64,000 nt of DNA from NCBI RefSeq assembly GCF_014397005.1, contig NZ_JACGWS010000002.1, forward strand, positions 186,001 to 250,000, written 5' to 3'. The position numbers and the translations under genes were made by a program. Position 1 is the first letter of the stretch, and the number at the start of each line of letters is the position of its first letter. Below, piece by piece: positions 1,584 through 45,946 of this stretch. Source of the stretch: Kordia aestuariivivens. Lineage in GTDB: Bacteria; Bacteroidota; Bacteroidia; Flavobacteriales; Flavobacteriaceae. The notes under the pieces are model-generated. The model saw only the letters and a list, made by a program, of their open reading frames with translations. It made no database searches and had not been told where the DNA came from.

Positions 1584-4500
1584 CTACTGGTGTCCCAAAT
1601 GACAACCACAGCCTGGTCTTGAAAAACTTTTAGATTCGTCATGCCACGGAAATGCTCCGTTGTATTTGCTGTTTTCCCAATAGAATTGTGAGCGATTTTT
1701 TGCTTCGTTTCCAACTTCGTTCATTGTTTCTGTATCGTACAAACGTCCGTTAATCATGGTGTGCGTAATACTTTCAGTATTTCTAATATTGTCTAAAGGA
1801 TTTTTATCTAGGATGATTAAATCGGCTAGTTTTCCAACTTTCAACGAACCAATATCGTTTCCTGCGCCAATGTATTCCGCTGGATTGATTGTTGCCGTTT
1901 TCAATGCTTCCATTGGCGACATTCCACCTTGTGCCATCATCCAAAGTTCCCAATGCGCGCCGAGTCCTTGCAATTGTCCATGCGCTCCAAGATTCACTTT
2001 TACACCTTTATCGGCTAATGCTTTTACCGTTTCAGATGTTAAAATGTGCCCGTTTTTATATTCTTCTTCTGGAATCATGGTACGATGTCTTGAGCGTGCA
2101 TCAATAATTCCTCTTGGTGTATATTTTAATAGTTTTTCGTTTTCCCAAACATTCGTTTTTTGATACCAATAGTATTCACCGTTGATGCCACCATAATTTA
2201 CAATTAAAGTTGGCGTGTAGCCAGTTTTACTATTTCCCCACAATTCTAATACATCTTTATATACAGGCGAAACAGGAATGTTGTGTTCTACGCCAGTATG
2301 TCCGTCCATAATCATCGTCATGTTGTGATAGAATGTTGATCCGCCTTCTGGAACGACAAAAATTCCTTCTTCACGCGCTGCTTGTAATATTTGTTGACGT
2401 TGCTCACGTCGTGGTTGATTGTAGCTTTTTACAGATAAGGCGCCAAATGCTTTTGTACGTCTGATTGATGAACGTGCATCTTCCAAATTGTTGACAACAG
2501 CTTTGAAATCGCCATCAGCTCCGTATAAGATAAATCCGGTAGAGTAGAGTCGTGGACCCACTAACGTACCGTTCTTTACTAATTCTGATAATGCAAAAAC
2601 AGTTTCCGTATTTGCAGATGGATCGTGTGCTGTGGTTACTCCAAACGCTAAGTTTGCGTAGAATTGCCAATGTTTTTGTGTGGTTAATCCATAGCGGAAT
2701 GCGCCAATGTGTGCGTGCGCATCAACCATTCCGGGCATGATGGTTTTTCCTGTCATGTCGTAGGTTTTCGTTCCGCTTGGAACTCTTACATCAGCCGCTT
2801 TTCCAATGGCTTCAATGCGATTGTCTTTTACGAGAATTGTTCCTTTTTCAATTACTTCTTCATTATCCATCGTGATGATTCTCGCATTTAAGAATGCAAT
2901 TCGTCCACTTGGTTTGTCTGTTTTTAACTTTAGATTGATCTTGATTCCTTCCGTAGTTAATTCAGGAGTTTTTTCGGGTGAACCGTCTAAATAGGTAAAT
3001 CTATTTTTGATTTCATTTGAAAAGTATTCGTTTCCTAGTGTCCACATCACTTTTTTGCTATTTGCCGACCAATGTAAATTTACACCAGCATCTTTCGCAA
3101 TTTGAGCCACAGGAAATGCTTTTGTTTTGTTGTCTAAGTTTACCGTTTGACCTGTTACAATCATTGGCGCAACATACGCTTTGTGCAATTGTGAAAAGGC
3201 AATCCATTTGTTGTCTGGACTTGGCACCAATCTGTTTGCATATTTTGACGTAAAGTGCGTGCGTTTGTCGTTTCCTTGAAGATTCACGCTGTGTAACGAT
3301 TTGGTTAGGTTTCCAAAATACGTTCCACCAGTTTGAATGAAAATTCGTGTTCCATCTGCTGAAAAGATAGGATATTCACCTTGTTGCGTAACTAATTTTG
3401 AATCGCTGCCATTCGCTTTCATCGTGTAGATTCCAGCATTTTTAGCAAATGTAAATCCTTGATCGCTGTTTCCGCGTTCTTTTCGGTATACGATATGAGT
3501 TCCATCTGGAGAAAACGAAGGCGTTCTGTAACTTCCTTTGTCAGAAGTTAGTTGCGAAGAACTTCCACCATTAATAGAAACTTTTCGAACCGAACCTAAG
3601 TTTAGATCATTCCAAGTCACATATACAATTTCTTTTCCATCAGGCGAAAAACTAGGCTCTGATTCAAAGTCAGTTCCGTTGGTTACTCTTTTCGGCGTTC
3701 CGTTTGGTAAGTTTTTCTTCCATAAATAACCAACTGCATTGAATACAACGGTTTTTCCATCGGGAGAAGTCACTGCTTGTCGAATTACTTTCGCATCAAA
3801 TGTATCTGGTGAAACAGGCGTATCAAACGAAATCGCTTCTGCAATTTTAATCGTAGCGTTTACCTTGAAAGGAATGTTGGTTACTTTTAAGGAATTGATA
3901 TCAATTTTGTGAATTTTTCCACCAGCCCAAAACACAATTTCGTTGTTATTCGGCATCCAACTAAAGTTTGGATAGACACCAAATATTGCCCACGCTTCTT
4001 GCTGATCTTTGTCTAAAGCATCAAATAAAGGCCATTCTTCGCCCGTTATTAAATCGTGGAGATATAAAACAGATTTTGTACGAACTCTTTTGATGAACGC
4101 AAGTTTTTTTCCATCTTTTGATATTTGAGGACGCGATGCGCCACCAGGTCCGCCAGTAACTCGTGTTGTTTTTCCTGTTTGAAAATCGTAGCGTTTGATG
4201 ACATAGATTTGCTTGTTTGGATCTTTGTTGTATTGAAACGCTCCACCCGAATACATATCTTCACTGTAATATAAGTAGCGACCGTCTGGTGAAACAGAAG
4301 GTTCGTTGACGTCTTGTTGTGAGTTTTTCTTTTTCGTTAGTTGCAAACCAGATCCGCCAGTGATGTGATATTGCCACATTTCTCCTGCACCAAGTGATCT
4401 TCCAGAGGTAAAGTGCTTTCGGGTAACAAACGAATTTCCATCGGGCATCCACGTAGAGTTGTTTAAGAGGCGAAAACTTTCTTTCGTAATTTGTTTCGCA

Positions 4501-4874
4501 TCAGAACCATCCGCATTCATCACCCAAATGTTATCGCCGCCGCCAGCATCACTTGTAAATAGAATTTTGGAACCATCGGGACTGAAATGTGGTTGTACTT
4601 CAAACGGAATTCCTGTGCGTAAAACGTTGGCATTTCCGCCAGAAATTGGCATGCTATAAATATCACCTAACAGATCAAATACAATGGTTTTTCCGTCTGG
4701 ACTTACGTCCAAATTCATCCATGTACCTTCGGTTGTGGTAAATTTGTGGTCTTTATAATTGAAGTCTCCTTTAGGGTTGGAAACGTCCCATTTTTCAGTT
4801 TCTTTTTTGTCTTGTGCAAGCGCACTGCAAACGAAGAATAATCCCAAAAGGATAGAAAGATTGGCTTTTAACAT
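1584..4874 (-). CDS. exported PD40 beta-propeller / amidohydrolase family protein
   Basis: This 1096-residue protein begins with a signal peptide (MLKANLSILLGLFFVCSALAQ). Residues ~45-620 carry TolB/PD40-type propeller repeats (SPDGKTIVF, SPDGSKILF, SPDGRYLYY, SPDGKEIVY). The C-terminal half is an amidohydrolase: an N-terminal beta-sandwich piece (ARIITMDNEEVIEKG), the metal-binding motif VDAHAHIG at about residue 716-722, and a C-terminal GKLADLIILDKNPL strand. Such fusions in Bacteroidota are annotated as amidohydrolases or imidazolonepropionase-like hydrolases and probably act on an oligopeptide or cyclic amide in the periplasm; the substrate is unknown. The tail ends in an unusual Cys/His-rich PGCGCHLGHQ. 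The start is supported by the signal peptide. Confidence 0.9.
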   Translation of the reverse strand: MLKANLSILLGLFFVCSALAQDKKETEKWDVSNPKGDFNYKDHKFTTTEGTWMNLDVSPDGKTIVFDLLGDIYSMPISGGNANVLRTGIPFEVQPHFSPDGSKILFTSDAGGGDNIWVMNADGSDAKQITKESFRLLNNSTWMPDGNSFVTRKHFTSGRSLGAGEMWQYHITGGSGLQLTKKKNSQQDVNEPSVSPDGRYLYYSEDMYSGGAFQYNKDPNKQIYVIKRYDFQTGKTTRVTGGPGGASRPQISKDGKKLAFIKRVRTKSVLYLHDLITGEEWPLFDALDKDQQEAWAIFGVYPNFSWMPNNNEIVFWAGGKIHKIDINSLKVTNIPFKVNATIKIAEAISFDTPVSPDTFDAKVIRQAVTSPDGKTVVFNAVGYLWKKNLPNGTPKRVTNGTDFESEPSFSPDGKEIVYVTWNDLNLGSVRKVSINGGSSSQLTSDKGSYRTPSFSPDGTHIVYRKERGNSDQGFTFAKNAGIYTMKANGSDSKLVTQQGEYPIFSADGTRIFIQTGGTYFGNLTKSLHSVNLQGNDKRTHFTSKYANRLVPSPDNKWIAFSQLHKAYVAPMIVTGQTVNLDNKTKAFPVAQIAKDAGVNLHWSANSKKVMWTLGNEYFSNEIKNRFTYLDGSPEKTPELTTEGIKINLKLKTDKPSGRIAFLNARIITMDNEEVIEKGTILVKDNRIEAIGKAADVRVPSGTKTYDMTGKTIMPGMVDAHAHIGAFRYGLTTQKHWQFYANLAFGVTTAHDPSANTETVFALSELVKNGTLVGPRLYSTGFILYGADGDFKAVVNNLEDARSSIRRTKAFGALSVKSYNQPRREQRQQILQAAREEGIFVVPEGGSTFYHNMTMIMDGHTGVEHNIPVSPVYKDVLELWGNSKTGYTPTLIVNYGGINGEYYWYQKTNVWENEKLLKYTPRGIIDARSRHRTMIPEEEYKNGHILTSETVKALADKGVKVNLGAHGQLQGLGAHWELWMMAQGGMSPMEALKTATINPAEYIGAGNDIGSLKVGKLADLIILDKNPLDNIRNTESITHTMINGRLYDTETMNEVGNEAKNRSQFYWENSKYNGAFPWHDESKSFSRPGCGCHLGHQ

Positions 4875-5270
4875 TTGGTTGTTGATTTAGCTTTCTAAAT
4901 TAGCCAATATAATGTTAATATTTCTTAAAAGAGTGTTAAGGTGTTTCGGGAAAGTCTTAAAAATAGGGCGTCTCTGACATATTGCAACAGATTCTTTTTG
5001 GATTGTGAAATTTTATGTTCTTTTTTTATGATTTTGGAGCTTAATTTTAATGATTGTAATTGAGTTTTTAATTTTCTTTTGCTTTGCTCGCACAAAGAAA
5101 AGAAACAAAAGAAAGTGCGCTTTTTCCAGAGGTGTTTTTAGCTTTCTCTTCGGAAAGCTAAAACCGCAATCATTTTTCTAAATTTTTTCCAAGGCTTCAA
5201 AAATTCTTAACGAAAAATGTTTGCTACACTGCGGAAAAAGAATCCGTAGCGTATTTTTTATCAGGCTTTT
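4875..5270. other. intergenic spacer with long 3' repeat
   Basis: No gene is seen. The left part is the upstream region of the amidohydrolase gene. The right part (about 5075-5250) is a copy of the ~170-bp repeat described separately. Confidence 0.6.
5075..5250 (-). repeat. ~170-bp 3'-associated repeat, copy 1 (uninterrupted)
   Basis: The sequence runs from TTTGCTCGCACAAAGAAAAG to CTGCGGAAAAAGAATCCG and matches 15806-15978 and 25222-25515 closely. It contains the hairpin AGCTTTCTCTTCGGAAAGCT. It ends about 20 bp from the stop codon of the DUF2306-like gene, that is, in the 3' region of that minus-strand gene. Confidence 0.8.
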
Positions 5271-5912
5271 TTAATTAGTTTTTCCAGTCTTCTTCTTAAG
5301 TTTTCTAAACCAATAAGTCATATAGGCAACTCCAAACACACTTGGTGTGAGCCAACCAGCAATTCCGGGAATGAATTGATTAACGACAATAAACGCTGTT
5401 ACTGCGGAAATGTATCCGCCGAGCATTTTACCGATGTGCATTTTGAGCCAATCTTTTCGGAGTTTTTTAGGGTTTTTGAACAGCATGAAATCTCTCGTAG
5501 CGAATATAATTCCGACCGTTCCAAAAATTGCTAATACAATATTGAGTTTCCCTATTAATAGTAACGGATAGATTATCATGACGATTCCTGTAGCAATCAT
5601 GGATGCAGAAACAATTTTGTCTATCAATAGTTTTGGATTTGGCTTTTTGAATCGTAATGCGCGATATCCTGTGATGATAAAGTACGAACTAAATAATCCG
5701 ATGGTGAATAGAAATGGATTTTCATGTTTTGGTAAAACTGCAATGACTAACGCAGACAATGCAGAAAACAACATTGTATAATAAAATACAATTCCTGATT
5801 TTTTATGATAGTTTCCACCTTTCTTGGTTATTATCGCAATGAATCCTGCGATGAAGGCAATTCCACCAAGTGTGGCATGTATATAGATCAGGTAAGTTGC
5901 AAATGTGTCCAT
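5271..5912 (-). CDS. DUF2306-like integral membrane protein
   Basis: A 213-residue protein with about six to seven hydrophobic helices (for example GGIAFIAGFIAII, GIVFYYTMLFSALSALVIAVL, MIATGIVMIIYPLLLIG). A histidine sits near the start of the first helix (YIHATLGG) and another near the last helices (KMHIGKMLGGYI), as in DUF2306-type membrane proteins, which resemble di-haem or quinone-binding helical bundles. I chose the ATG at 5912 because the longer reading starts on a TTG at 5936. Function is unknown. A ~170-bp repeat follows its stop codon. Confidence 0.75.
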   Translation of the reverse strand: MDTFATYLIYIHATLGGIAFIAGFIAIITKKGGNYHKKSGIVFYYTMLFSALSALVIAVLPKHENPFLFTIGLFSSYFIITGYRALRFKKPNPKLLIDKIVSASMIATGIVMIIYPLLLIGKLNIVLAIFGTVGIIFATRDFMLFKNPKKLRKDWLKMHIGKMLGGYISAVTAFIVVNQFIPGIAGWLTPSVFGVAYMTYWFRKLKKKTGKTN

Positions 5913-6021
5913 TGAGTTATTTTTATCAAATGTCAATGGTTGTGTATCGTTTAGAAATTTTTCATTACTGAACTGAAGGATTTGATTGCTGAATTGTTTT
6001 AGTCAAATACTAAGTTGAAGT

Positions 6022-6279
6022 TTATTTAGGATAATTTATCCCTAACCAAATCATAAAACTTCCCATAATGATGAGTATTATGATAGAACCATAGAATAAT
6101 CCCCAACCTATTTTCTTAAAACTATTTTTAGCAAAGAATTTTAATAAAAAACCACAAATCAGACAGATAGTATAAATTGTAATTATTAGACTAAAATCAT
6201 CTAATAATTTGAAAACCCATAAAATTGAAATGTGAACTATTAGAGTTAATGCAAATGATATTTTAGATATATTAACCAT
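6022..6279 (-). CDS. small hypothetical membrane protein
   Basis: An 85-residue protein with three predicted membrane helices (ISFALTLIVHISILWVF, LIITIYTICLICGFLLKFF, GLFYGSIIILIIMGSFMIWLG). The ATG at 6279 is preferred to the TTG one codon earlier. It starts 17 bp after the stop of the 180-residue gene upstream on the same strand, so the two are probably co-transcribed. I do not recognise the family. Confidence 0.6.
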   Translation of the reverse strand: MVNISKISFALTLIVHISILWVFKLLDDFSLIITIYTICLICGFLLKFFAKNSFKKIGWGLFYGSIIILIIMGSFMIWLGINYPK

Positions 6280-6296
6280 CAATTATTATAAAGTTT

Positions 6297-6839
6297 TTAG
6301 TTTTCTAATTCGTCTCTAATTATTTTATGACTGTTTTTACGCTCTTTTTTAATCCTATCAGATTTATCTTTTGCAGCATGTTCGTTTTTATCAGATTCAA
6401 ACCAGATATGACTTTCGGTTAATCGAGAACCTTGTTTTATCATAATTCCGTTGTATGGACAATCTTCATATCCACAATTATGCTTTGAGTATTCTCCAAA
6501 ATTTCGATGTTTAATTTTCTTTTTGGAGAGTATTTTTTCTTGGTTTATTCGAATATCGTCCCAAACTTTTTGTATATCAGCTTGTGTCATTTCTTTTCCA
6601 AGTGTCGTTAAGTCAAAATAGGTTTTAGGATCTTTTAGCTGATAAAAGTCGAACGTTTTTCCGAAAATAGTATTTGCGTAATCTCTTATTTCAATTCGGT
6701 CATTTAGTGTGAGTTTCTCATTTTCACAAATAGAACGATACATTCCTAAGGTATTAAAGTCAGTATATTTTTTATGGTTGTCTATGAAATGAAAATAGTC
6801 ACTTTTATTAAGTTGATTGAATTTTTTTTCGATTTTCAT
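6297..6839 (-). CDS. hypothetical cytoplasmic protein
   Basis: A 180-residue, highly charged protein with no signal peptide or membrane segment. The C-terminal third has a small Cys/His cluster (HNCGYEDCPYNG, then SHIWF) that could bind a metal, and ends in a Lys/Arg/Glu-rich helix. It is probably co-transcribed with the small membrane protein downstream. Family not recognised. Confidence 0.65.
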   Translation of the reverse strand: MKIEKKFNQLNKSDYFHFIDNHKKYTDFNTLGMYRSICENEKLTLNDRIEIRDYANTIFGKTFDFYQLKDPKTYFDLTTLGKEMTQADIQKVWDDIRINQEKILSKKKIKHRNFGEYSKHNCGYEDCPYNGIMIKQGSRLTESHIWFESDKNEHAAKDKSDRIKKERKNSHKIIRDELEN

Positions 6840-39710: not shown

Positions 39711-39884
39711 ATGGGAATTCAAATGCTTTACGGAGTTGGGATTAGAGAAGCTATTGCTTCTAATAGTCTTGAAAAAATGAAAGCTGTTGCTGCACAAGCA
39801 GAAGTAACATTGAAAGCACAAGGAGATATAGGCGCTGCTTATGTTGAATTGAGAGATGCTATTCAAGCGCTTGAAGGCAAATAG
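39711..39884 (+). CDS. DUF1843 peptide, probable radical SAM maturase substrate
   Basis: A 57-residue protein that is easily missed because of its size. It matches DUF1843: LYGVGIREAIASNSLEKMK, AQAEVTLKAQGDIGAAYVEL and a helical C-terminus ending ALEGK. The family's conserved GDL/GDI motif is at QGDIGAAY. It contains no Cys. A perfect terminator hairpin follows and then a radical SAM/SPASM gene, the typical layout of an abundant modified peptide and its maturase. The peptide family is recognised from sequence; that it is the substrate is an inference from position. Confidence 0.8.
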   Translation: MGIQMLYGVGIREAIASNSLEKMKAVAAQAEVTLKAQGDIGAAYVELRDAIQALEGK

Positions 39885-39902
39885 TAAACCAAATTTTTGA
39901 AA

Positions 39903-39934
39903 GTTTGAGAAGAAGCCTCTTCTCAAACTTTTTT
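39903..39934 (+). terminator. read-through terminator between peptide and maturase
   Basis: GTTTGAGAAG at 39903-39912 pairs perfectly with CTTCTCAAAC at 39919-39928 around AAGCCT, followed by six T. It should end most transcripts after the DUF1843 gene and let a fraction read into the maturase. Confidence 0.85.
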
Positions 39935-39954
39935 AATCCCAAAAAAAGAAAATT

Positions 39955-41388
39955 ATGGAATTATTGAGTTCAAAAAGATATCGTGTTCGTGATGATTTTA
40001 AAACGGCGCGCCCAGTATATGTAGTTTGGGAAATTACTTTAGCCTGTAATTTGAAATGCACACATTGCGGTTCAAGAGCGGGTAAAGTGCGTCCTGGCGA
40101 ATTGACAACGGAGCAATGTTTTGAAGTGATTGATAGTTTAAAACGATTAGGAACACGAGAAATTTCCATTATTGGAGGAGAAGCATTTTTGAGAAAAGAT
40201 TGGCTAGACATTATTCGTAGAATTGATGAAAGTGGTATGGAATGTTCTATGCAAACAGGCGCGTACAATCTTACTGAAAAACGAATCATGGATGCGAAAG
40301 CAGCTGGAATTAAAAACATAGGTGTTTCAATAGATGGTTTAGAAAAAACACACAATGATATTCGTGGACGAAAGGATTCCTTCTCACAAGCAATCAACTG
40401 TTTGAGCTTGTTAAAAAAACATGGAATTGTATCGAGTGTGAATACAACAATGACAAAGAAGAATAAAGATGAGTTAGATGAATTGTTAGATATTCTAATT
40501 GCTAATGGAGTAAAAAATTGGCAAGTTCAATTGGTGGTTGCTATGGGAAATGCTGTTGATAATTCAGATGAACTTGTAATTCAACCTTATGAACTCATAG
40601 ATTTTTATGAAAACTTAATTGTAATTTATAGAAAGGCCTTAGCGAATAATGTATTAGTGCAAGCAGGAAACAATATCGGATATTTTGGACCTTATGAGCA
40701 TATTTGGAGACAAGGAAGTGTTGGGTATTATTCAGGGTGTTCAGCCGGACATACAGCTTTGGGAATTGAAGCTGACGGAATTATCAAAGGTTGTCCTTCA
40801 TTACCAACAAGCGATTATACAGGAGGAAATGTAAAAGATATGAGTATTGAGGATATCTGGAAATATAGCGAACAAATGTTTTTCTCAAGATATCGAAATA
40901 CAGAAGAAATGTGGGGCGGATGCAAAGGTTGTTATTATGAAACTTCTTGTTTGGCAGGTTGTAGTTGGACAAGTCATGTGTTATTTGGAAAACGAGGAAA
41001 CAATCCATTTTGTCATCATAGAGCAATAGAACTGAATAAAAAAGGACATAAAGAACGAATTCGAAAAATAAAAGAAGCAGAAGGAACTTCGTTTGATTAT
41101 GGATTGTATGAAGTTGTAGTAGAAGATTTTAATGGAAATATCATAGAAATACAAACGCCAACTTCTACGGAAACCATTGTGAATGAATATGAAAATAGAG
41201 TGCCAAGAGATCCAAAACCATTAAAATTATGTAAAGCGTGTAATCATCATATCTATGAAGCTTCAGAAGTCTGTGATTTTTGCCATAAAGATGTTGCAGA
41301 AACGAATGCGACGTATGAGAAAAACATGAAGAAAGCACAAGAGGTTTTAGAACGTTTAGAGCTTCTAATGAGTGCTCCCGCAGAATAA
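39955..41388 (+). CDS. radical SAM/SPASM peptide maturase with C-terminal zinc ribbon
   Basis: A 477-residue protein. The radical SAM cluster motif is CNLKCTHC (Cys31, 35, 38). The TIM barrel follows (REISIIGGEAFLRKDW, GVSIDGLEKTHNDIRG). A SPASM-type Cys cluster occupies ~260-345 (CSAGHTALGIEADGIIKGCPSLP, GGCKGCYYETSCLAGCSW, PFCHH) and would bind extra Fe-S clusters. At ~425-447 there is a separate four-Cys zinc ribbon (CKACNHH...CDFCHKD). Such enzymes modify ribosomally made peptides; NCBI-type annotation names a 'GDL motif peptide-associated' maturase beside DUF1843-like peptides (from memory). An upstream hairpin should lower its expression relative to the peptide. Confidence 0.88.
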   Translation: MELLSSKRYRVRDDFKTARPVYVVWEITLACNLKCTHCGSRAGKVRPGELTTEQCFEVIDSLKRLGTREISIIGGEAFLRKDWLDIIRRIDESGMECSMQTGAYNLTEKRIMDAKAAGIKNIGVSIDGLEKTHNDIRGRKDSFSQAINCLSLLKKHGIVSSVNTTMTKKNKDELDELLDILIANGVKNWQVQLVVAMGNAVDNSDELVIQPYELIDFYENLIVIYRKALANNVLVQAGNNIGYFGPYEHIWRQGSVGYYSGCSAGHTALGIEADGIIKGCPSLPTSDYTGGNVKDMSIEDIWKYSEQMFFSRYRNTEEMWGGCKGCYYETSCLAGCSWTSHVLFGKRGNNPFCHHRAIELNKKGHKERIRKIKEAEGTSFDYGLYEVVVEDFNGNIIEIQTPTSTETIVNEYENRVPRDPKPLKLCKACNHHIYEASEVCDFCHKDVAETNATYEKNMKKAQEVLERLELLMSAPAE

Positions 41389-41428: not shown

Positions 41429-41498
41429 GTCATTTCGAGCGCAGTCGAGAAATAATAAATTTTGAATATCAAAGCATTTCGACTGCGCTCAATGTGAC
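41429..41498. repeat. dispersed TCGAG-type inverted repeat, copy 3 (long hairpin)
   Basis: GTCATTTCGAGCGCAGTCGA at 41429 pairs with the inverted TTTCGACTGCGCTC...TGTGAC ending at 41498. It lies between the convergent maturase and purL genes and may serve as a bidirectional terminator. Confidence 0.75.
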
Positions 41499-41530
41499 AA
41501 CTGCAAATATTTTAACTTTTTAGACAACCT

Positions 41531-44500
41531 CTATTTTTTCGCTTCAATCCATAAACGAGCATTCACAAATGCTTCTAACCAAGGAGAAACTTCGTCTTTT
41601 CGTCCTGCAGGATAATTTGCCCAATTCCATTGGAATGTAGAACGTTCAATATGTGGCATTGTTACCAAATGTCTTCCTGTTGCATCACACAACATTGCGG
41701 TATTAAAATCTGAACCATTAGGATTTGATGGATACGCTTCATAACCGTATTTCGCAACAATTGAATAGTCTTTTTCAGCAAGCGGTAAATCAAATTTTCC
41801 TTCTCCGTGAGAAATCCAAACGCCTAAAGTTGTGCCTGCTAAGCTAGAAAGCATTACCGAATTATTCTCTTGAATTTTTACCGAAGTAAACGCACTTTCG
41901 TGTTTTTGAGAATCGTTGTAGGTCATTTTTCCGTGTGTTTCATGCTCCGGATTAATCACTTCCAATTCCATAAACAATTGACAACCATTACAAATCCCGA
42001 CTGATAAAGTATCTTCTCGCTTGAAGAAATTTTTCAATGCCGTATTTGCTTTTTCATTATATAAAAATGCGCCAGCCCAACCTTTTGCCGAACCTAATAC
42101 ATCCGAATTTGAAAATCCGCCGACAGCGCCAATAAACTGAATATCTTCTAAGGTTTCACGTCCCGAAATCAAATCGGTTGTATGTACATCTTTTACATCA
42201 AAACCAGCTAAATACATTGCGTTTGCCATTTCGCGTTCAGAATTTGAACCTTTTTCACGAATAATTGCTGCTTTTGGTCGTTTTCCGTCATTACGAGGAG
42301 TTTGCGACGAAGTAATCTCATTATTTGCAGCAGATTGCTTCACTGCGTTCGCAATGACGTCCTTTAATTTGCCCGTAAAGTGTGATGGAAATGTATACTG
42401 TAACGGTTGATTTTTAAAGTTTTCGTATCTCGCTTGCGCTAGATTGTTCGCGGTTTGTTTTTGATCGAGTAGGAACGAAGTTTTATACCAAGTATCTCTC
42501 GTTTCATTTACATTAAAAGTAAAATCTTGATCGTGATTTTTTATGTTGACAGTTGCTGTATTGGTTACATTTCCAATATTAAAAAAGGCAATATTGTTCG
42601 CTTTTAAGGTTTCTTCTACACTTTCGTCTGCTTGAAAAACGATCCCTGCATTTTCAGAAAATAGAAGTTTGATTGAATCTTCTTCTGTTAAATTTGACAA
42701 ATCAAGGTCTGCGCCTAAATCTACTTCGGCAAAACACAATTCTAACAACGTCGTGATCAATCCGCCAGAAGCGACATCGTGTCCAGCTGCAATTTTATCT
42801 TCTTTAATTAAATTTTGAATCGTGTTAAATACTGTTTTTACATACGCCGCATCTTGAACGTTTGGCGCTTCGTTTCCAATCGTATTTAATACCTGATTGA
42901 AAGAACTTCCACCTAATTTAAAAGTATCTTGCGAAATGTTGATGTAATAAATATTTCCACCATTTTGTTGTAACACAGGTTCTACTACTTTCGTAATTTC
43001 ACTACAATTTCCTGCCGCAGAAATAATCACCGTTCCTGGAGAAATCACTTCGTCGTCTGCGTATTTCTGCTTCATTGATAACGAATCTTTCCCTGTTGGA
43101 ACGTTGATTCCTAAATCAATTGAAAACTCAGAAATTGCTTTTACAGCTTCATACAAACGTGCATCTTCACCTTCATTTTTACACGGCCACATCCAGTTTG
43201 CAGAGAGTGAAACACTTTGTAAGTTATCTTTTAGTGGTGCCCAAATAATATTGGTTAAGGCTTCTGTAATCGAATTGCGACTTCCAGCTACAGGATCTAT
43301 CAATCCAGAAATTGGCGAATGTCCAATAGACGTTGCAATTCCTTCTTTTCCGTTATAATCCAATGCCATCACACCAACATTATTCAACGGAATTTGTAAG
43401 GCACCGACACATTGTTGTTTGGCAACTTTTCCACCCACACAGCGGTCTACTTTATTTGTTAACCAATCTTTACAAGCAACTGCTTCCAACTGCAATACTT
43501 GGTTGAGGTAGATGTGTAAATTTTTAGTTTTATATCGTGAATTCTTATAGTTTCTTTCAACAGTAACATCATTCATGATGGTTTTTGGAGAACTTCCAAA
43601 CATATCACTCAAGGCTAAATCCATTGGTTTATCGCCTTTGGTTTTCGATTCAAATGTAAAACGATCGTCAGCAGTTACATCTCCAACGGTATACATTGGC
43701 GAACGTTCGCGCTCAGCAATTTTCTGAAGTGTTTCAATATGTTTTTCGGCAATCACCAATCCCATACGTTCTTGTGATTCGTTTCCGATAATTTCTTTCG
43801 CGGAAAGTGTCGGATCGCCCACAGGCAATTTATCCAAGTCAATTTTTCCACCAGTTTCTTCAACCAATTCCGAAAGACAGTTTAAGTGTCCACCAGCACC
43901 ATGATCGTGAATGGAAACGATGTAATTTTCATCACTTTCCACCATGCCACGAATAGCGTTTGCTGCACGTTTTTGCATTTCAGGATTGGAACGTTGCACT
44001 GCATTTAGTTCAATTCCTGTGGAGAATGCGCCTGTATCTGCAGAAGAAACGGCTGCGCCGCCCATTCCAATTCGGTAATTTTCACCACCAAGAATGACAA
44101 TTTTGTCGCCTTCTTTTGGAGTTTCTTTGATGGCCTGTGAAGCTTTCCCGTAACCAATTCCACCAGCTTGCATGATGACTTTGTCATACCCAAGTTTTCT
44201 AGATTTTGCAGTACTTGAAGCAGCATTTTCTTCATGTTCAAATGTTAATACGGAACCACAAATTAACGGTTGTCCAAATTTGTTTCCAAAATCAGAAGCA
44301 CCATTGGAAGCTTTGATTAAAATGTCTACAGGTGTTTGGTATAACCAATCTCTGGCTTCAAATTTTTCTTCCCAATATCTCTTGTCTTCTAATCGCGAAT
44401 AAGAAGTCATATAGACAGCTGTTCCAGCCAATGGTAAAGAACCTTGTCCGCCAGCAAGCCTATCTCTAATTTCTCCTCCAGCACCAGTTGCTGCGCCATT

Positions 44501-45274
44501 AAAAGGTTCAACCGTTGTTGGGAAGTTGTGTGTTTCTGCTTTTATTGAGATGACAGATTCAAATTCTTGAACGTCGTAAAAGTCTGGTTTGTCAGCCGTT
44601 TTTGGTCCAAACTGTGTCACTTTTGGACCTTTTATGAAAGCTACATTGTCTTTATAAGCTGAAACAATATCGTTTGGATGTTGCTTTGATGTTTCTTTAA
44701 TCAGTTTGAATAATGATGTTGGTTTTTCTTCGCCATCAATGATAAATGTTCCGTTGAATATTTTGTGTCTACAGTGTTCTGAATTGACTTGTGAGAATCC
44801 AAATACTTCGGAATCCGTTAGTTTTCGACCTAGTTTTTCAGCAAGTTGTTCTAAGTATTCAATTTCTTCAATATTTAAAGCCAAACCTTCTTGTTCATTA
44901 TAGGCGGCAATATTGTCAATGTCTAGGATTGCTTCTGGTTCAACATCAATCGTAAAAGTATCTTGATGTAATCCATTGAATTTTTGAGAAATCATCGGGT
45001 CAAAATCTGTGAATTCTTCAGCGACCGCTTTAAATTCTTCAATTCGGATAATACCTTCAATGCCCATATTTTGGGTGATTTCCACGGCATTTGTACTCCA
45101 AGGAGTTATCATTGCTGCTCTAGGACCAACAAAAAAAGCATCCAAAGATGCTTGTTCAATTTTAGGTGCGTTGCCAAAAAGCCAGTTGAGTTTTGCAACG
45201 TTTTCTGTTGATAATTCTTTTACTGTTTGTACAGCAAATATTTTACTGTGTACGTTTCCAAAGAAATGAATCAT
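41531..45274 (-). CDS. purL: phosphoribosylformylglycinamidine synthase (FGAM synthase)
   Basis: A 1247-residue large-type PurL. It has the N-terminal PurS-like domain, the linker, two AIRS-like domains (ETHNFPTTVEPFNGAATGAGGEIRD, HDHGAGGHLNCLSELVEETGG) and a C-terminal glutaminase domain with the nucleophile Cys in GICNGCQLFMELE and His in MPHIERSTFQW. It makes FGAM from FGAR, glutamine and ATP in purine synthesis. Residues ~972-996, just before the glutaminase domain, are encoded by a 76-bp palindromic repeat (KDVIANAVKQSAANNE...TPRNDG) that other PurL proteins would lack. The frame is kept, so the enzyme is probably functional. Confidence 0.95.
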   Translation of the reverse strand: MIHFFGNVHSKIFAVQTVKELSTENVAKLNWLFGNAPKIEQASLDAFFVGPRAAMITPWSTNAVEITQNMGIEGIIRIEEFKAVAEEFTDFDPMISQKFNGLHQDTFTIDVEPEAILDIDNIAAYNEQEGLALNIEEIEYLEQLAEKLGRKLTDSEVFGFSQVNSEHCRHKIFNGTFIIDGEEKPTSLFKLIKETSKQHPNDIVSAYKDNVAFIKGPKVTQFGPKTADKPDFYDVQEFESVISIKAETHNFPTTVEPFNGAATGAGGEIRDRLAGGQGSLPLAGTAVYMTSYSRLEDKRYWEEKFEARDWLYQTPVDILIKASNGASDFGNKFGQPLICGSVLTFEHEENAASSTAKSRKLGYDKVIMQAGGIGYGKASQAIKETPKEGDKIVILGGENYRIGMGGAAVSSADTGAFSTGIELNAVQRSNPEMQKRAANAIRGMVESDENYIVSIHDHGAGGHLNCLSELVEETGGKIDLDKLPVGDPTLSAKEIIGNESQERMGLVIAEKHIETLQKIAERERSPMYTVGDVTADDRFTFESKTKGDKPMDLALSDMFGSSPKTIMNDVTVERNYKNSRYKTKNLHIYLNQVLQLEAVACKDWLTNKVDRCVGGKVAKQQCVGALQIPLNNVGVMALDYNGKEGIATSIGHSPISGLIDPVAGSRNSITEALTNIIWAPLKDNLQSVSLSANWMWPCKNEGEDARLYEAVKAISEFSIDLGINVPTGKDSLSMKQKYADDEVISPGTVIISAAGNCSEITKVVEPVLQQNGGNIYYINISQDTFKLGGSSFNQVLNTIGNEAPNVQDAAYVKTVFNTIQNLIKEDKIAAGHDVASGGLITTLLELCFAEVDLGADLDLSNLTEEDSIKLLFSENAGIVFQADESVEETLKANNIAFFNIGNVTNTATVNIKNHDQDFTFNVNETRDTWYKTSFLLDQKQTANNLAQARYENFKNQPLQYTFPSHFTGKLKDVIANAVKQSAANNEITSSQTPRNDGKRPKAAIIREKGSNSEREMANAMYLAGFDVKDVHTTDLISGRETLEDIQFIGAVGGFSNSDVLGSAKGWAGAFLYNEKANTALKNFFKREDTLSVGICNGCQLFMELEVINPEHETHGKMTYNDSQKHESAFTSVKIQENNSVMLSSLAGTTLGVWISHGEGKFDLPLAEKDYSIVAKYGYEAYPSNPNGSDFNTAMLCDATGRHLVTMPHIERSTFQWNWANYPAGRKDEVSPWLEAFVNARLWIEAKK
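42286..42361. repeat. palindromic repeat inserted in frame in purL
   Basis: CGTCATTACGAGGAGTTTGCG at the left and an inverted CGTCATTGCGAACGCAGTGA (read on the minus strand from 42361) at the right form long imperfect arms with the shared GAAG(T/C)AATCT. This is the 'GTCATTGCGA...GAAGCAATCT' type of dispersed repeat. It adds ~25 codons without a stop. Confidence 0.8.
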
Positions 45275-45434: not shown

Positions 45435-45839
45435 TTATATTTTAGAGACTTTAGCATCTTCAATATCAACCCATCTTCCATTTGGATTTAAGTATGAAAA
45501 GTTAGCTGTTCCACCTGACCAGTCTTCTTCTAGTACCATTCGTAATTTTGTGTTTGGTAATAAAACGGGTCCAATTCCAGCATTTGGCGGCCATTTTATA
45601 GTAGGATATCCTTCGGTAACTACCAATATTTTTGTATTCTTTGGCATTACTGTCATGTACGTATAATCACCGTGTAAAGTTGTCATCAAATCTAATGGAG
45701 GGTTTGATGTGTCTGTAATGTTCCCTTGTCCATTTACTCTTTGATTTGGAGTAGAAACAGTTAAGTGTACTTCAAATCTTGGCGCGCCCATTAGTCCTGT
45801 TGTAATCTCGTAAGAAACAATAAATAGTCCTGTTTTCAT
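45435..45839 (-). CDS. DUF1842 family protein
   Basis: A 134-residue protein from the ATG at 45839, which begins MKTGLFIVSYEITTG; a longer reading from 45869 lacks family similarity. It matches DUF1842: GLMGAPRFEVHLTVSTP, VNGQGNITDTSNPPLD, DYTYMTVMP, NTKLRMVLEEDWSGGTANFSYLN. It is an all-beta soluble protein of unknown function. DUF1842 and DUF1843 proteins often share neighbourhoods (from memory). Here they are 5.5 kb apart with the maturase and purL between them. Confidence 0.8.
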   Translation of the reverse strand: MKTGLFIVSYEITTGLMGAPRFEVHLTVSTPNQRVNGQGNITDTSNPPLDLMTTLHGDYTYMTVMPKNTKILVVTEGYPTIKWPPNAGIGPVLLPNTKLRMVLEEDWSGGTANFSYLNPNGRWVDIEDAKVSKI

Positions 45840-45946
45840 GATATAGTTTTTTATGATTAATAATACCATTAAGTTAGTAAAAAAAACTATATTTAGTAAG
45901 ATAAAAACTACCTATTTTTAAAAAATAGGTATAAATGCTTACTTTC

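What the first reader, a model, noticed from the sequence alone, without database searches (positions are those of the whole stretch)
39711..41388. DUF1843 peptide with a read-through terminator and a radical SAM/SPASM-zinc ribbon maturase: a probable peptide-modification system
Seen: a 57-residue DUF1843-type gene carrying QGDIGAAY, a perfect 10-bp-stem terminator (39903-39934), then a radical SAM enzyme with CxxxCxxC, a SPASM-type Cys cluster and an added four-Cys zinc ribbon. Known: radical SAM/SPASM enzymes mature ribosomal peptides, and an abundant precursor followed by a leaky terminator and a scarcer maturase is a common RiPP layout. The peptide has no Cys, so thioether (sactipeptide) chemistry is excluded; a C-C crosslink, epimerisation or cleavage is more likely. 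The product and role of the DUF1843 group are not established as far as I know.
Basis: partly seen in the sequence, partly recalled or inferred. Interest (0 to 1): 0.75.

Follow-up and report, generated by a model that had tools for sequence, protein, structure and literature searches.

The report
Small peptide with likely backbone-splicing enzyme
A bacterium carries a 57-residue peptide gene next to an enzyme that probably cuts a piece out of the peptide's own backbone, leaving a reactive group; the gene pairing was already catalogued, but the likely chemistry and the exact site can now be tested directly.

Summary
A 57-aa DUF1843 peptide (39711-39884; Pfam E 1.5e-12) is followed by a hairpin and a radical SAM/SPASM enzyme with a C-terminal four-Cys ribbon (39955-41388). 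[quoted passage not shown] this copy scores below its cut-off (522 vs 592 bits). The next family is TIGR04103 (425 bits; third-best 170), to which, as I recall, the tyramine-excising splicease PlpX belongs. Spliceases act on X-Tyr-Gly; the window peptide has Leu-Tyr-Gly at residues 6-8. In 27 DUF1843-rSAM loci the Tyr is kept in 58 of 59 peptides and each locus holds at least one X-Tyr-Gly peptide. [quoted passage not shown] No mass measurement exists; one query found no PlpY-like partner. Peptide and enzyme sit in the same 3 of 11 congeneric genomes and, by my reading of the hits, the same 3 of 395 Bacteroidota genomes. The 2022 splicease survey could not be read, so the assignment may already be in print.

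The parts
39711..39884 (+). DUF1843 peptide gene (57 aa), proposed substrate
   Evidence: PF08898 E 1.5e-12; only DUF1843 match in its genome at E <= 0.001
39726..39734 (+). Codons for Leu6-Tyr7-Gly8, the proposed X-Tyr-Gly splice site
   Evidence: Tyr in 58 of 59 peptides of 27 loci, Gly in 39 of 59; X-Y-G is the site of the PlpXY splicease (PMC10533398, passages)
39822..39830 (+). Codons for Gly-Asp-Ile, presumably the 'GDL motif' of the family name
   Evidence: GDL/GDI/GDV/GDM in 39 of 52 distinct peptides, KDL in 11, ADL in 1, none found in 1
39900..39931 (+). 14-bp hairpin with T run 39929-39934: presumed leaky terminator or RNA stabiliser between peptide and enzyme
   Evidence: z -5.3; 13- and 15-bp versions with changed loops in two other Kordia loci
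39955..41388 (+). Radical SAM/SPASM enzyme (477 aa), proposed tyramine splicease
   Evidence: TIGR03913 522 bits, TIGR04103 425 bits; 45% identity over 383 columns to a TIGR04103 protein of Nostoc
40045..40068 (+). CxxxCxxC motif (C31, C35, C38), SAM-binding [4Fe-4S] cluster
   Evidence: invariant in the aligned rows
40738..41013 (+). SPASM-region Cys cluster (C262 to C353), presumed auxiliary Fe-S ligands
   Evidence: PF13186 E 4.6e-7; Cys invariant
41230..41283 (+). C-terminal four-Cys zinc ribbon (C426, C429, C440, C443)
   Evidence: invariant in 21 Bacteroidota rows; present in Azospirillum, absent from the Nostoc TIGR04103 protein
45435..45869 (-). DUF1842 gene (144 aa), possible associated protein, beyond purL
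   Evidence: PF08896 E 5.5e-26; the only DUF1842 match in the genome; within 8.4 kb of the enzyme in 12 of 22 relatives

Best explanation
The peptide and enzyme are a precursor/maturase pair in which the enzyme works like the PlpX splicease. It would make a 5'-deoxyadenosyl radical at its CxxxCxxC cluster, attack Tyr7 of the DUF1843 peptide and excise a tyramine unit (C8H9NO, about 135 Da), rejoining Leu6 to the carbonyl left from Tyr7. The result is a small helical protein with an electrophilic alpha-keto-beta-amino residue next to Gly8 near its N terminus. The hairpin between the genes would keep the enzyme scarcer than the peptide. The likely use of the ketoamide is covalent binding to a serine or cysteine enzyme, in line with the protease inhibition reported for spliceotide products. 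Shown: gene order, family matches, co-occurrence, motif conservation, hairpin. Inferred: chemistry, site, stoichiometry, purpose.
For: Enzyme: the best two NCBIfam matches are TIGR03913 (522 bits) and TIGR04103 (425 bits); the third is 170 bits. It is 45% identical over 383 columns to Nostoc L052, over the TIGR04103 cut-off (853 vs 725), and 46% over 476 to Azospirillum L054, over the TIGR03913 cut-off (763 vs 592). Blocks shared with Nostoc include AGNNIGYxGPYE, KGCPSLPT and RGNNPxCHHRA. PlpX is placed in IPR026482 and excises tyramine at Xaa-Tyr-Gly (PMC11002830, passages); that IPR026482 is TIGR04103 is my recall. [quoted passage not shown] PlpA2-derived tags read PIRPLYGLPI or PIRPGYGLPI (PMC10533398, passages). 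The Nostoc gene follows a Nif11 precursor ending ...GSIALYGLPPELF. Peptide: GIQMLYGVGI in the window, PIRMLYGGAM in Azospirillum. In 27 loci Tyr is kept in 58 of 59 peptides (51 of 52 distinct), +1 is Gly in 39 of 59, X = Leu 28, Pro 22, Met 8, Ala 1; 27 of 27 loci have at least one X-Y-G. The DUF1842-DUF1843 fusion in PDB 8t0b has AAMYGVAI at that place. Co-occurrence: the same 3 of 11 in the genus; the same 3 of 395 in the phylum by my reading.
Against: No modification was measured here or found in print. The enzyme is below the cut-offs of both families (522/592 and 425/725). No homologue of the small protein beside the Nostoc enzyme, which I take for PlpY, was found in the window's genome or in four related genomes or records; the only hit was the Nostoc positive control. 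There is no Nif11 domain in the genome. The +1 residue is not Gly in 20 of 59 peptides (Ala 17, Met 3), and one peptide has His for Tyr, so the motif is looser than X-Y-G. The L-Y-G tags were not accepted by PlpXY at the FtsZ places tried in PMC10533398 (Table 1), so flanks matter. The Tyr could be kept for folding: the model puts it in the first helix at low confidence (mean pLDDT 60 for residues 1-10). The tree leaves the order of the Nostoc, Azospirillum and Bacteroidota branches open, with long branches. The 27 loci are related by descent. None of the six further neighbours scanned is a peptide exporter or protease.
Confidence: 0.62

Rival explanations
1. The enzyme modifies the conserved Tyr, or residues beside it, by another SPASM-type reaction: a C-C or C-O crosslink, epimerisation, or oxidative cleavage.
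For: Many SPASM maturases do this (general knowledge); +1 is Ala or Met in 20 of 59 peptides, which a strict X-Y-G enzyme would not tolerate; no PlpY-like homologue found with one query.
Against: The gap between the TIGR04103 match (425 bits) and the next family after it (170 bits) is large. A crosslink would need a second conserved partner residue near the Tyr; the other invariant columns apart from Met1 lie in the predicted helices or their ends.
Confidence: 0.2
2. The DUF1843 peptide is not a substrate but a folded partner or regulator of the enzyme, or an abundant structural protein (self-assembly was proposed by Beeby et al., as told in PMC10994174); the true substrate is elsewhere, for instance DUF1842.
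For: DUF1843 also occurs fused to DUF1842 (PMC10994174, passages; 8t0b), and most conserved columns are in predicted helices. DUF1842 is linked within 8.4 kb in 12 of 22 relatives.
Against: DUF1842 is absent from 7 of 22 enzyme-bearing genomes and found in 7 of 395 Bacteroidota genomes without the enzyme, whereas DUF1843, by my reading, does not part from it in these samples. PMC10994174 saw no oligomers of its fusion protein.
Confidence: 0.15
3. A degraded or non-functional remnant of a peptide-modification locus.
For: No exporter or protease among the six further neighbours scanned; only 3 of 11 genomes of the genus have it.
Against: All catalytic Cys are intact, identity to two other Kordia copies is 84-85% over the whole enzyme, and the peptide is 96% identical to theirs.
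Confidence: 0.03

Closest known systems
[quoted passage not shown]
   Same: Full-length match (residues 7-471 to positions 5-476), C-terminal zinc ribbon, single or tandem DUF1843 genes upstream
   Different: 522 bits against a cut-off of 592; the Bacteroidota members scored here have 520-535 bits and the nine in the tree form their own branch
PlpX tyramine splicease (IPR026482; by my recall TIGR04103, nif11-class peptide radical SAM maturase 3)
   Same: 45% identity through radical SAM and SPASM parts to a Nostoc TIGR04103 protein; X-Tyr-Gly in the partner peptide
   Different: No Nif11-type leader, no PlpY-like partner found, a C-terminal zinc ribbon that Nostoc lacks, site near the N terminus of a small helical protein instead of a C-terminal core
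Chromobacterium subtsugae quorum-sensing operon U6115_13245-13260 (PMC12114271, passages read)
   Same: DUF1843, DUF1842 and a GDL-type maturase together, strongly induced
   Different: Two DUF1842 genes inside the operon; in the window the DUF1842 is 4 kb away on the other strand. That paper assigns a 'XYE' system, not a splicease
DUF1842-DUF1843 fusion Q63NT7 (PDB 8t0b; PMC10994174, passages and the discussion read)
   Same: Carries M-Y-G at the start of the DUF1843 domain
   Different: Fused protein; DUF1843 part not resolved; its authors take fragments of 4-5 and 17-19 kDa to mean a cut just N-terminal to that domain

Membership tests
TIGR03913 (GDL peptide-associated maturase) | Score above the curated cut-off (591.75 bits) | tested here: not met
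   521.9 bits
TIGR03913 (GDL peptide-associated maturase) | Full-length profile match including C-terminal zinc ribbon | tested here: met
   7-471 to 5-476 of 477; ribbon Cys shared with Azospirillum
TIGR03913 (GDL peptide-associated maturase) | DUF1843/GDL peptide gene beside it | tested here: met
   PF08898 E 1.5e-12; 27 of 27 loci
TIGR04103 / PlpX splicease | Score above the curated cut-off (725 bits) | tested here: not met
   425.3 bits
TIGR04103 / PlpX splicease | X-Tyr-Gly in the partner peptide | tested here: met
   L6-Y7-G8 in the window; 39 of 59 peptides and 27 of 27 loci
TIGR04103 / PlpX splicease | Small PlpY-type partner protein | tested here: not met
   No match in 5 genomes or records, positive control found; one single-sequence query, taken for PlpY by its place in Nostoc, so a distant partner could be missed
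TIGR04103 / PlpX splicease | Nif11- or nitrile-hydratase-like leader on the precursor | tested here: not met
   The precursor matches DUF1843 only, apart from a sub-threshold E 0.15 hit; no Nif11 in the genome; the nitrile-hydratase-like leader was not searched genome-wide
TIGR04103 / PlpX splicease | Loss of C8H9NO at Tyr, giving a ketoamide | not testable with these tools
   Needs mass spectrometry
Sactipeptide maturase | Cys residues in the precursor core for thioether links | tested here: not met
   No Cys in the window peptide; Cys in 1 of 52 distinct peptides

The most novel reading that the evidence does not exclude
DUF1843 is a family of small folded proteins, not classical peptide natural products, that are natural splicease substrates: a PlpY-independent, zinc-ribbon-bearing splicease turns an N-terminal X-Tyr-Gly into a ketoamide warhead, often in sets with X-Tyr-Ala paralogues, and the products serve as endogenous covalent inhibitors or reactive tags in Bacteroidota and Proteobacteria, including strongly stationary-phase- or quorum-induced operons.
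Probability: 0.4. Interest if true: 0.72.

Novelty: new member of a known kind. Interest (0 to 1): 0.52.

Why it matters
DUF1843 and its maturase occur in Bacteroidota and Proteobacteria, and DUF1842/DUF1843 genes are strongly induced in published Chromobacterium and Burkholderia thailandensis data (passages), yet the papers I could search name no product. If the enzyme is a splicease, the product, the site (Tyr7) and the mass change (about -135 Da) are predicted exactly, which makes the function of a domain family of unknown function testable. It would also suggest a splicease that needs no separate partner protein and a short natural site, useful for protein labelling.

Tried and rejected
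Sactipeptide/thioether chemistry: rejected, no Cys in the peptide. Defence (viperin): PADLOC pVip matches (best E 1.1e-21) I take for generic radical SAM similarity. Rfam: no match in the window at gathering scores; no tRNA. PHROGs: nothing for the peptide, the DUF1842 protein or the 227-aa Flavobacterium neighbour.

DUF1843 hits in five other genomes at 23.3-23.7 bits inside 743-759-aa frames, plus one extra hit in G353 (23.8 bits, 782 aa), were dropped as chance. I read four of the six (L019, L021, L023, L027) and they do not look like DUF1843; two (L020, L022) were printed on the wrong strand and were not read. By the cut-off alone 8 of 395 genomes have DUF1843; by my reading 3 of 395. For the enzyme in the genus, 8 of 11 genomes have some match at E <= 0.001; 3 of 11 have one at about 520 bits and the rest are at most 41 bits.

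Loci not counted among the 27: G353 and G255 (L017, L018, L028, L029), which also carry X-Y-G peptides (G255 seems to be the genome of L048), and Nostoc, Tropicibacter and Agathobacter, where no DUF1843 was found. The peptide scan looked 1.3 kb upstream on one strand and required the helix after the motif but not Tyr or Gly, so divergent peptides could be missed. The 22 named relatives come from one pattern scan that reached Bacteroidota only; Proteobacteria are represented by three Azospirillum plasmids, so the census there is missing.

AlphaFold of the enzyme was poor (mean pLDDT 60), so no fold search was made; the peptide model was moderate (75). Self-assembly of DUF1843: considered; PMC10994174 found none with its fusion protein. 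Print: searches for DUF1843, TIGR03913, GDL motif, splicease and related terms (listings capped) showed no paper that I saw to link DUF1843 to splicing; Scott et al. 2022 (Chem) and the 2018 Science paper (PubMed 29449488) are not held and were not read.

Full report
What is there. The window lies in a 5.46-Mb genome. Two genomes of its genus have contigs of exactly the same length as named Kordia contigs, so I take the organism to be a Kordia species (Flavobacteriaceae). At 39711-39884 a 57-aa protein matches DUF1843 (PF08898, E 1.5e-12) and at 39955-41388 a 477-aa radical SAM/SPASM protein follows on the same strand. Between them a 14-bp perfect hairpin (39900-39931) runs into six T (39929-39934); it folds far better than 200 shuffles (z -5.3), though a consensus terminator scan does not list it. 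Downstream, convergent, is purL; 4 kb away, on the other strand, is the genome's only DUF1842 gene (45435-45869).

Is it more than chance? DUF1843 and the enzyme go together. In 11 genomes of the genus both are in the same 3 (enzyme counted at about 520 bits, radical SAM hits of about 41 bits or less ignored). In 395 genomes of the phylum the enzyme (E <= 1e-80) is in 3. DUF1843 passes the cut-off in 8, but five of these have only 23.3-23.7-bit hits inside 743-759-aa frames, which I dropped after reading some of them; the remaining 3 are the enzyme's 3. In 72,556 plasmid records DUF1843 was found in 4, and all 4 have the enzyme just downstream. A scan of genome contigs with a profile of five enzymes gave 22 named loci, all Bacteroidota; with the window and the four plasmids this makes 27 loci, each with one to four DUF1843 genes within 1.3 kb upstream. 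Shared descent means that these are not 27 independent cases.

What the enzyme is nearest to. [quoted passage not shown] the third family has 170 bits. Bacteroidota relatives score 520-535 on TIGR03913, two Azospirillum proteins 761 and 764, and a Nostoc protein 853 on TIGR04103. The tree of 15 keeps Bacteroidota and Azospirillum as separate supported groups, with Nostoc and a Tropicibacter protein beside them; the order of these branches is not resolved and long branches make it unsure. So the window enzyme is a sub-cut-off branch of the TIGR03913 kind, and its next kin is TIGR04103. A 2024 review places PlpX in IPR026482 and describes tyramine excision at Xaa-Tyr-Gly (PMC11002830, passages read). 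That IPR026482 equals TIGR04103 is my recall; the Nostoc locus fits it, with a Nif11 precursor ending LYGLPPELF, the enzyme, then a 71-aa protein.

The site. The window peptide begins MGIQMLYGVGIREAIAS. [quoted passage not shown] the LYG tags were not accepted at the FtsZ places tried there). In 59 peptides of the 27 loci the Tyr is kept in 58 (one His); the next residue is Gly 39, Ala 17, Met 3; the residue before is Leu 28, Pro 22, Met 8, Ala 1. All 27 loci have at least one X-Y-G peptide, and the four loci with a single peptide are all L-Y-G. X-Y-A and X-Y-M peptides occur only in sets that also hold an X-Y-G one. A DUF1842-DUF1843 fusion in the PDB has AAMYGVAI at the same place, there internal. 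This places the conserved feature near the start of the peptide, not at QGDIGAAY, whose Gly-Asp-Ile I take for the 'GDL motif' and whose Tyr is found in 5 of 34 aligned peptides.

How it most likely works. I propose tyramine excision at Tyr7, leaving a leucine-derived alpha-keto-beta-amino residue followed by Gly8. Products of this kind are described as protease inhibitors (PMC11117315, passages; PMC10373908, one section), so a covalent inhibitor or reactive tag is the first guess for function. The hairpin suggests more peptide than enzyme: in 22 of 27 loci the gap before the enzyme folds with z <= -3.0 against 100 shuffles (exceptions L037 -1.9, L041 -2.1, L046 0.0, L055 -0.2, L058 -1.3; four gaps over 150 nt were cut to 150, and gap ends follow the tblastn start of the enzyme in most loci). 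Perfect stems of six or more pairs with at least three G-C were found in 7 of 27. Termination and read-through were not measured.

What speaks against it. The enzyme misses both cut-offs. A PlpY-type partner was sought with one query in six genomes or records and only the positive control was found; the zinc ribbon, absent from Nostoc, may take its place, which is a guess. Gly at +1 is not universal. The Tyr may matter for folding; the low-confidence model puts it inside helix 1. I found no mass data.

Surroundings. DUF1842 is in 15 of 22 enzyme-bearing genomes, within 3.5-8.4 kb of the enzyme in 12 of the 22, but also in 7 of 395 genomes of the phylum without the enzyme, so it is an associate, not an essential part. 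In a Flavobacterium locus the set is larger: a 227-aa protein without a family, two DUF1843 genes, enzyme, a methyltransferase, a glycosyltransferase, a protein with a sub-threshold AMP-binding match, others without a family, and DUF1842. In Chromobacterium subtsugae DUF1843, DUF1842 and a GDL maturase are described as one quorum-induced operon (PMC12114271, passages), and in Burkholderia thailandensis DUF1842/DUF1843 genes are listed among the strongest inductions on entry to stationary phase (PMC12322963, passage).

Known or new. The pairing is known and curated. No paper that I saw in the searches links DUF1843 to splicing, but the 2022 survey of splicease systems by Scott and others is not held and may include this family. 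I file the window pair as a new member of a known kind that probably works like a splicease, without calling it a member of the PlpX family.

Noticed in passing
42330-42359, inside purL (41531-45274, -): A repeat-like palindromic stretch lies inside purL and is read through in frame: against K. jejudonensis the window protein has 13 extra residues in ...DVIANAVKQSAANNEITSSQTPRNDGK.... It may be a mobile repeat that inserts peptides into proteins; other copies were not sought outside the window.
   Followed up: partly
41430-41499: By eye, a long inverted repeat (TCATTTCGAGCGCAGTCGAGAAAT and a matching arm) directly after the radical SAM gene, between the convergent rSAM and purL genes; possibly a bidirectional terminator or REP-like element (sequence; first arm found once in the window).
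   Followed up: no
L056 (Tropicibacter oceani plasmid) 3701-6509: A related radical SAM protein with a zinc-ribbon-like Cys motif at the N terminus instead of the C terminus, next to a trypsin-like peptidase gene; no DUF1843 was found on the record.
   Followed up: no
L031-L051 (Flavobacterium and others), L046, L049, L053: DUF1843 sets often pair an X-Tyr-Gly peptide with an X-Tyr-Ala one; the latter often is nearest to the enzyme, and in the 27 loci Y-A or Y-M peptides do not occur without a Y-G one.
   Followed up: partly
L080 5600-15885 (Flavobacterium, G423): A larger gene set: 227-aa protein, DUF1843 x2, enzyme, methyltransferase, glycosyltransferase, a possible AMP-binding protein, a 614-aa protein, DUF1842.
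   Followed up: partly
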